38,522 nt of DNA from Thermoplasmata archaeon. Its GTDB lineage: Archaea; Thermoplasmatota; Thermoplasmata; RBG-16-68-12; JAGMCJ01. Of this stretch, positions 1,427-1,930 are shown piece after piece. How positions within the stretch are numbered: the stretch's first letter is position 1; the number at the start of each line of letters is the position of its first letter. The notes under the pieces are model-generated. The model was not told where the DNA came from and did no database searches. It worked only from the letters and a program-made list of their open reading frames with translations. The stretch spans positions 1-38,522 of the forward strand of contig JAGMAI010000030.1 of NCBI GenBank assembly GCA_023130895.1, given 5' to 3'. The translations under genes were made by a program, and so were the position numbers.

Positions 1427-1930
1427 CGGAGTTGAAACGGAGTGGGTACGGAGTGGGTACGGAGGGGAAACGGAGTGGGTCTATAGAACACTAGGAGAAC
1501 ACTTACAGGAAGATAGGAGCGACATTACAGAGAGTTAGGAGAGACATAGGAGAAAAACGACCGAAACGCTTAAGAGCACTTGTCAAGGCCTCCTAAGCAG
1601 AGCCGAAGCGGAGTGGGTGTGGAGGGGAAGTGGAGGAGAAGCGGAGGATCACTAGTGAGACATAGGAGAAACAGTGGAGAAGCACTGGAGGCAAAGGCTT
1701 AAGAGGGGTAGCAAGGGGGCTCGGAGCTCATTCTATCACGGAGACACAGCGAATAGCAAGGATCCTGCAAGGAATAGCAAGGGAGGAGCAAGGTTTCGGC
1801 AAGGAACCAGCAAGCGACCTGCAAGGATCTAGCAAGGATTCGGCAAGGATGTCCCTGGTATGTATATGGTAGGTCCCTAGGATGTCACAGGAAACCTAGG
1901 CGGGACCTTAGGATTTGCCTATGATTTGTC
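1427..1930. repeat. Diverged 11-bp tandem repeat region in three to four phase blocks
   Basis: CGGAG at 1427,1438,1449,1460,1471; AGGAG at 1493,1515,1537,1548; [C/T/A]GGAG at 1609,1620,1631,1642,1664,1675,1686; GCAAG at 1756,1767,1777,1788,1799,1810,1821,1832,1843; looser TGGTA/TAGGAT units to ~1930. Confidence 0.85.

What the first reader, a model, noticed from the sequence alone, without database searches (positions are those of the whole stretch)
1427..1930. About 500 bp of non-coding DNA built from 11-bp phased repeats
Motif starts fall on an almost exact 11-nt lattice: CGGAG at 1427/38/49/60/71; AGGAG at 1493/1515/1537/1548; [C/T/A]GGAG at 1609/20/31/42/64/75/86; GCAAG at 1756/67/77/88/99/1810/21/32/43. 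Looser TGGTA/TAGGAT units follow to ~1930. The motif core changes between blocks but the period holds, so either an old minisatellite diverged or spacing is under selection. Eleven is not a multiple of three, stops occur in the region and the ORF track lists no ORF spanning it, so coding is unlikely. It ends ~60 bp upstream of the promoter of a large surface protein. Eleven bp is close to one helical turn, so a protein array on one DNA face, phased architecture, or a repeat-binding RNA are possible (inference).
Basis: seen in the sequence. Interest (0 to 1): 0.88.

Follow-up and report, generated by a model that had tools for sequence, protein, structure and literature searches.

The report
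Eleven-base phased arrays fronting DUF6266 genes
The 500-base stretch is a real, non-coding array of short units spaced exactly one DNA turn (11 bases) apart; about ten or more such arrays sit in every genome of this archaeal genus, and in both archaea and bacteria arrays with this spacing sit just upstream of genes for one uncharacterised protein family (DUF6266), which points to an undescribed gene-control module.

Summary
In detail: lag-11 identity of 1421-1935 is 0.52 versus 0.278±0.020 in dinucleotide shuffles (z 12). The array is not unique. At least 9-14 loci per genome carry such arrays in all five held genomes of the genus, many at syntenic intergenic sites. Eleven is the only non-coding repeat period in a 400-kb sample. 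Between related arrays the 4-base core (NNAG) changes at 2.7%, spacer positions at about 15%, and indels inside the lattice are mostly whole 11-mers, so motif and spacing are constrained. All 17 testable genus copies of a ~187-aa DUF6266-like gene carry such an array directly upstream. The association recurs where the DNA shares no detectable sequence similarity: in two other archaeal families (7 of 7 first genes; 6 of 242 controls) and in Sphingobacteriales (17 of 30 DUF6266 genes; 1 of 255 controls), where some arrays have period 10 and the longest follow a small HTH_17 (Xis/BldC-like) gene. The window's array is a solitary copy lacking the DUF6266 gene, related to those upstream arrays. Best reading: helically phased operator array for a protein that oligomerises head to tail, one protomer per DNA turn. 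Neither binding nor the archaeal binder is shown.

The parts
1391..1404 (+). promoter-like element (CCGAAACGCTTATC) about 25-30 nt before the first lattice unit of block A
   Evidence: read in sequence; TATA part not conserved in syntenic copies L083 and L100, so its promoter role is an inference
1425..1560 (+). block A: 11-nt lattice with cores CGGAG, TATAG, AGGAG, ACAG; 13 AG in 14 positions (chain 1430-1574)
1563..1576 (+). promoter-like element (CCGAAACGCTTAAG) before block B; with 1391 a direct repeat that flanks block A, consistent with gain or loss of block A by recombination (W versus L100)
   Evidence: inference for the recombination
1597..1690 (+). block B: 11-nt lattice with cores CGGAG, TGGAG, AGGAG
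1692..1705 (+). promoter-like element (CAAAGGCTTAAG) before block C
1745..1935 (+). block C: 11-nt lattice, cores GCAAG then CTGG/ATGG, CTAG, ACAG, CTAG, TTAG, TATG, ending ...CCTATGATTTGTC; related to arrays upstream of DUF6266-like genes (76% to L006; shares the CCTATGATTTGTC end with L470)
1988..1993 (+). TATA-like box (TTATAA) of the downstream surface-protein gene, outside the array
   Evidence: read in sequence
2031..5618 (+). neighbouring NosD / beta-helix surface-protein gene; neighbour only, not part of the module
   Evidence: Pfam PF05048, PF13229
40..1338 (-). neighbouring seryl-tRNA synthetase gene; marks the syntenic site (also beside arrays in L067, L083, L100)

Best explanation
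The array is a helically phased DNA operator array: tandem direct repeats with a 4-5 base core once per DNA turn, read along one face of the helix by a protein that oligomerises head to tail, one protomer per 11 bp (the way BldC, lambda Xis, RdfS and ParR work). Arrays of this kind are a standing part of DUF6266-family gene units in archaea and Bacteroidota and probably set their expression; in Bacteroidota the nearby HTH_17 protein is the natural candidate binder. The window's copy is a solitary array without a DUF6266 gene, either a relic or an extra binding site. Shown: periodicity, constraint on core and spacing, association with DUF6266 genes in two domains, HTH_17 gene upstream of the long bacterial arrays. 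Inferred: protein binding, DNA rather than RNA as the ligand, regulation as the output, and a binder in archaea that is not of the HTH_17 family.
For: Constraint: core positions -2 to +1 change at 55/2029 (2.7%), spacer positions (-4, +2 to +6) at 442/3001 (14.7%), flanks at 8.2%; in-lattice gaps are 12 of 11 nt, 2 of 22, 1 of 33, 2 of 44 out of 31, while flank gaps are mostly 1 nt. Period: 11 (with 22 and 33) is the only period apart from multiples of 3 in 400 kb of G004. Gene link: 17/17 genus copies with enough upstream sequence have the array upstream, none in the gene or downstream, versus 3/500 random windows (Fisher 4e-29; copies are partly orthologous, so not fully independent). In other archaeal families 7/7 first genes have 11 as top lag versus 6/242 controls, and the two second-in-tandem genes do not (p 2e-10). 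In Sphingobacteriales 17/30 DUF6266 genes reach 0.5 upstream, 0 downstream, 1/255 controls in ten of the same genomes (p 2e-18, or 9e-16 without G064). Helical turn: bacterial arrays come at 11 or 10. Candidate binder: an HTH_17 gene lies upstream on the same strand in 7 of 8 loci with the long far 11-lattice versus 2 of 18 others (Pfam). Published precedent: ParR of R1 binds 11-bp repeats (PMC9426499); BldC and RdfS oligomerise head to tail, one DNA turn per BldC (PMC5859096, PMC11963761). No RNA structure.
Against: HTH_17 is not found in the five genomes of this genus nor in G006 and G012, so the archaeal binder is unknown. In the genus the lattice lies between a TATA-like element and the DUF6266-like start codon in most copies, with the AG strand as sense, which would also suit an RNA-level role. 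In other archaeal families the lattice is short (4-5 units) and pyrimidine-rich on the sense strand. Exactly 11.0 bp drifts against 10.5 bp/turn over 10-17 units, so a straight one-face filament does not fit without superhelical wrapping. Cores differ between blocks and genes, so one sequence-specific binder cannot read them all. The HTH profile was trained on 7 of the 10 hits.
Confidence: 0.5

Rival explanations
1. RNA-level array: the lattice is transcribed as a leader or small RNA and an oligomeric RNA-binding protein (possibly the DUF6266 protein itself) reads NNAG every 11 nt, as TRAP reads NAG triplets or CsrB-type RNAs display GGA motifs.
For: In the genus the AG/GG strand is the sense strand in the DUF6266-like leaders and the lattice lies between a TATA-like element and the gene in most copies; promoter-like elements precede 11 of 67 blocks versus 2% of random windows and 1 of 67 facing in from the other side.
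Against: No fold signal; most blocks have no promoter match in 90 nt; the strand is reversed in G006/G012; bacterial lattices lie at -70 to -480, some directly after the HTH stop codon; period 10 and 11 fits a helix better than a single strand.
Confidence: 0.2
2. Chromosome-organising sites: the solitary arrays are centromere- or anchor-like landmarks bound by a filament-forming protein.
For: Many loci per genome, many at fixed syntenic sites beside unrelated genes; ParR/parC of plasmid R1 uses 11-bp direct repeats (PMC9426499).
Against: The tight link to one gene family in two domains is not expected of landmarks; block content at a site changes between species.
Confidence: 0.1
3. Diverged minisatellites without function, kept in register by inheritance and spread by gene conversion.
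For: Blocks are shared between sites (window array 94-96% to non-syntenic L093/L094); 11-nt minisatellites occur elsewhere, for example in Bacteroidota.
Against: Core changes several-fold less than spacer and than flanks; indels are whole units; only period 11 occurs; association with DUF6266 genes across domains.
Confidence: 0.12
4. Coding or leader-peptide device: an upstream ORF runs through the lattice and controls the DUF6266-like gene.
For: Several leaders have an ATG about 31 nt after the TATA-like element and an ORF open through the lattice, overlapping the gene start.
Against: No codon-position or synonymous bias; the window's solitary array has no such ORF; unit indels of 11 and 22 shift the frame.
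Confidence: 0.05

Closest known systems
BldC / lambda Xis / RdfS wHTH proteins on direct repeats
   Same: direct, non-palindromic repeats about one DNA turn apart; head-to-tail cooperative oligomers; number of repeats varies; HTH_17 genes lie upstream of the long bacterial arrays here
   Different: their repeats are AT-rich or degenerate and few; here up to 17 lattice positions in blocks with different cores; archaeal carriers have no detected HTH_17 protein; no binding shown
parC centromere of plasmid R1 (ParR, 11-bp direct repeats)
   Same: same 11-bp period, direct repeats, located upstream of the gene
   Different: parC goes with parM/parR; the pattern here goes with DUF6266 genes at many chromosomal sites
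TAACTGA heptamer arrays of Beggiatoaceae, Cyanobacteria and Bacteroidetes (PMC4679880)
   Same: abundant intergenic direct repeats upstream of start codons, in unrelated lineages including Bacteroidetes, function unknown
   Different: one fixed heptamer motif, downstream genes functionally varied; here period 11 (10), motif free, one gene family
TRAP and CsrB/RsmZ repeat RNAs
   Same: NAG or GGA motifs repeated at set spacing (general knowledge, not tested)
   Different: different spacing, RNA ligands; no RNA evidence here
DUF6266 (PF19781)
   Same: the protein family linked to the arrays; N-terminal domain shared by archaeal and bacterial members (hhalign probability 97.8%)
   Different: function unknown; no paper found in the library

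Membership tests
Phased direct-repeat operator of the BldC/Xis/RdfS type | direct repeats at about one helical turn | tested here: met
   period 11 in archaea, 11 or 10 in Bacteroidota
Phased direct-repeat operator of the BldC/Xis/RdfS type | cognate wHTH (HTH_17/MerR-like) protein in the same genome | tested here: not met
   met in Bacteroidota; not found in the genus of the window nor in G006/G012, so the window's array is not filed as a member
Phased direct-repeat operator of the BldC/Xis/RdfS type | demonstrated cooperative binding | not testable with these tools
   needs protein and DNA
ParMRC partition locus | parM and parR next to the repeats | tested here: not met
   array neighbours scanned in Pfam are seryl-tRNA synthetase, NosD, HD, SIS, radical SAM, P-type ATPase, Ras-like, TruB and others; no ParM/ParR among them
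CRISPR array | repeats of about 24-48 nt with unique spacers of about 30 nt | tested here: not met
   11-nt units
Neutral minisatellite | mutations spread evenly over the unit; indels of any length | tested here: not met
   core 2.7%, spacer 14.7%; indels mostly whole units
MC1-bound chromatin site (11-bp footprint, from general knowledge) | MC1 protein encoded | tested here: not met
   PF05854 not found in any of 37 genomes of the order searched
TRAP/CsrA-type RNA array | transcribed, single-stranded, bound by TRAP or CsrA | not tested
   no expression data; families not searched for

The most novel reading that the evidence does not exclude
A cross-domain two-part system: a DUF6266 protein gene plus an upstream array in which only the spacing of one helical turn, not the motif, is common to all members, so that the recognised feature is DNA shape or periodic wrapping rather than a fixed operator sequence; the archaeal genus has amplified solitary arrays of it.
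Probability: 0.3. Interest if true: 0.92.

Novelty: new variant of a known kind. Interest (0 to 1): 0.82.

Why it matters
It ties an uncharacterised protein family to a defined DNA architecture that holds in archaea and bacteria although motif and surrounding DNA share no detectable similarity, so spacing alone is conserved. It makes two things testable: what DUF6266 proteins are and how they are controlled, and whether a protein can recognise DNA mainly by a sequence repeated once per turn. It also gives a context to what would otherwise pass as junk minisatellites.

Tried and rejected
Coding reading of the array (no codon signal). Structured RNA (none). MC1 chromatin protein (absent). HTH_17 as the archaeal binder (not found). 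Regulation of the adjacent surface-protein gene: neighbours of arrays are unrelated and in all orientations. A mobile element with clear ends: dispersed copies share a ~1.04-kb unit (L470/L472, -427 to +613) but I saw no terminal inverted repeats by eye. DUF6266 fold: AlphaFold models confident (pLDDT 88) but only Ig/FN3-like partial matches of the C-terminal domain; nothing useful in PHROGs, PADLOC or NCBIfam. Literature: no report of 11-base lattices in archaea and none on DUF6266.

Full report
What is there. Window 1425-1935 holds three blocks of 11-base units, each in its own phase: 1427-1574 (cores CGGAG, TATAG, AGGAG, ACAG), 1601-1690 (CGGAG, TGGAG, AGGAG) and 1756-1933 (GCAAG, then CTGG/ATGG, CTAG, TTAG, TATG). 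Lag-11 identity is 0.52 against 0.278±0.020 in shuffles, and lags 22, 33 and 44 follow. The plus strand is purine-rich here. Nearly all cores end in AG or GG; one chain has 13 AG in 14 positions. No RNA family, tRNA or folding excess is found in the array. The array lies between seryl-tRNA synthetase and a NosD-type surface protein, ending about 55 bases before a TATA-like box of the latter.

It is a family, not a single oddity. DNA similarity finds 10 matches on 9 contigs in the window's own genome, the window included, and related arrays in all five held genomes of the genus, none in 56 others of the order and class. A CTTG lattice pattern gives 19-48 matches per genome with 0-1 in the reversed-pattern control; the GGAG pattern is less clean. 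I fetched the array loci with flanks. Arrays fill intergenic gaps, many at sites that are syntenic between species, with convergent, divergent and co-directional neighbours of unrelated function. In 400 kb of G004 outside the known arrays there were three more, of TATAG/TATGG type, and apart from multiples of 3 (coding repeats) no period other than 11 and 22 appeared; there was no convincing array in about 527 kb of five other-family genomes, where the two G006 hits are low-complexity tracts that score at nearly every lag.

Core and spacing are under constraint. Over a minimum spanning tree of array blocks (60 edges) the four positions NNAG changed at 2.7%, spacer positions at about 15%, aligned flanks at 8.2%. 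Gaps inside lattices are mostly whole units (17 of 31 are multiples of 11, and three pairs of 4+7 look like split 11s), while flank gaps are mostly one base. Chains were defined by AG, which favours positions 0 and +1, but positions -2 and -1 are equally conserved and were not used. A neutral minisatellite would not do this.

The gene link. A ~187-aa protein next to several arrays proved to belong to a multi-copy family, 3-9 matches per genome in the genus, absent by single-sequence search from five others; two of its relatives in the large protein database are named as Thermoplasmata. Of 19 copies with an intact start, 17 had 500 bases upstream and all 17 had an 11-base array there (0.55-0.76), none in the gene, none downstream; 3 of 500 random windows reach 0.55. 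Some copies are orthologues of each other, so the 17 are not fully independent. A second, related set (c27) has arrays at its 3' side on the other strand (L079, L080, L081, L096, L103). One member matches Pfam DUF6266 just above its cut-off (PF19781) and the family matches bacterial DUF6266 clearly by profile comparison (97.8%).

The link holds outside the genus. A profile search of 37 genomes of the order found family members in only two genomes outside the genus, G006 (8) and G012 (1). There the upstream DNA shows 11 as the highest of 26 lags in 7 of 7 first genes, against 6 of 242 control genes in G006; the two genes that are second in a tandem pair lack it. These lattices are short and pyrimidine-rich on the sense strand. 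In Bacteroidota, 23 of 61 genomes of the order of G064, the genome of the Sphingobacterium nematocida locus L174, have DUF6266 genes. Of 30 genes with upstream sequence, 17 reach 0.5 at lag 11 upstream and none downstream; the mean maximum at lag 11 is 0.513 against about 0.385 at other lags. In 255 control upstream regions from ten of the same genomes only one reaches 0.5. G064 entered because it held a lattice; without it the count is 14 of 26. A few start codons were misplaced by my script (for example L516, L522, L527), which makes the count conservative. Some genes have a 10-base lattice instead of, or besides, the 11-base one.

A candidate binder. In Bacteroidota a small HTH_17 (Xis/BldC-type) gene on the same strand precedes the long far 11-lattice in 7 of 8 loci and only 2 of 18 others; a profile of these proteins finds nothing in 400 kb of control DNA (three of its ten hits were not in the training set). 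Published proteins of this type bind direct repeats as head-to-tail oligomers, BldC with one DNA turn between molecules on its extended site (PMC5859096, PMC11963761), and ParR of R1 needs at least two 11-bp repeats (PMC9426499). HTH_17 is not found in the archaeal carriers, so there the binder would be another protein.

How it works, as far as can be said. Shown: periodicity, constraint, cross-domain association with DUF6266 genes, and HTH_17 adjacency in bacteria. Inferred: that the ligand is DNA, because periods of 10 and 11 bracket the helical turn, the motif is free and no RNA structure is seen; that a protein oligomer reads it; that the outcome is control of the DUF6266 gene. The window's array has no DUF6266 gene next to it (hmmsearch of the window and loci); its last block resembles and ends like those upstream of such genes, so I take it as a solitary member. 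Against a DNA reading stand the sense-strand placement between a TATA-like element and the gene in this genus and promoter-like elements before some solitary blocks (11 of 67). Exact 11.0 spacing would need a superhelical path or underwound DNA.

What it is not. Not CRISPR, not a parMRC locus, not an MC1 site, not coding, not a known RNA. Its membership in the BldC/Xis class is unproven and one defining feature fails in the archaea; it works like it on geometry.

Limits.

Noticed in passing
window 18241-18342: tRNA found by Rfam (54 bits) over 102 bases but missed by ARAGORN; probably an intron-containing archaeal tRNA.
   Followed up: no
L006, L467, L470-L473, L484, L485: DUF6266-like leaders carry an ATG about 31 nt after a TATA-like element and an ORF open through much of the lattice, some overlapping the DUF6266-like start; N-termini of two types resemble each other (MSGPEKLGNP, MSRPEIPGNP), but there is no codon-position signal.
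   Followed up: partly
L006 versus L471 (G000): Gene and 1.3 kb downstream are 91% identical while the leaders are unrelated, so leaders appear to be swapped by recombination; L470 versus L472 show the reverse (leader about 96%, gene about 72%, flanks unrelated).
   Followed up: partly
L517, L513, L514, L535, L515, L509: A 10-base lattice, in several loci with a core near GTCAAA, lies at about -80 to -190 of bacterial DUF6266 genes.
   Followed up: partly
L519, L520, L522, L532: Genes after bacterial DUF6266 include CHAP-type cell-wall hydrolase-like proteins and small lipoprotein-like proteins, which resembles a lysis or phage-derived cassette.
   Followed up: no
L125-L244 (genome-contig scan): Many diverged 11-base repeats in Bacteroidota (for example L182, L167, L170) not next to DUF6266 genes by my profiles.
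   Followed up: partly
L245-L357 (viral contigs): 113 viral stretches contain four GCAAG cores at 11-base spacing, more than base composition would give by my estimate; often GCAAGTTxGTT units.
   Followed up: partly
L056, L062, L469, L472: A shared short sequence TTGTCG(T/C)..CTTCAT(A)TTGAAG near the ends of arrays and DUF6266-like units.
   Followed up: no
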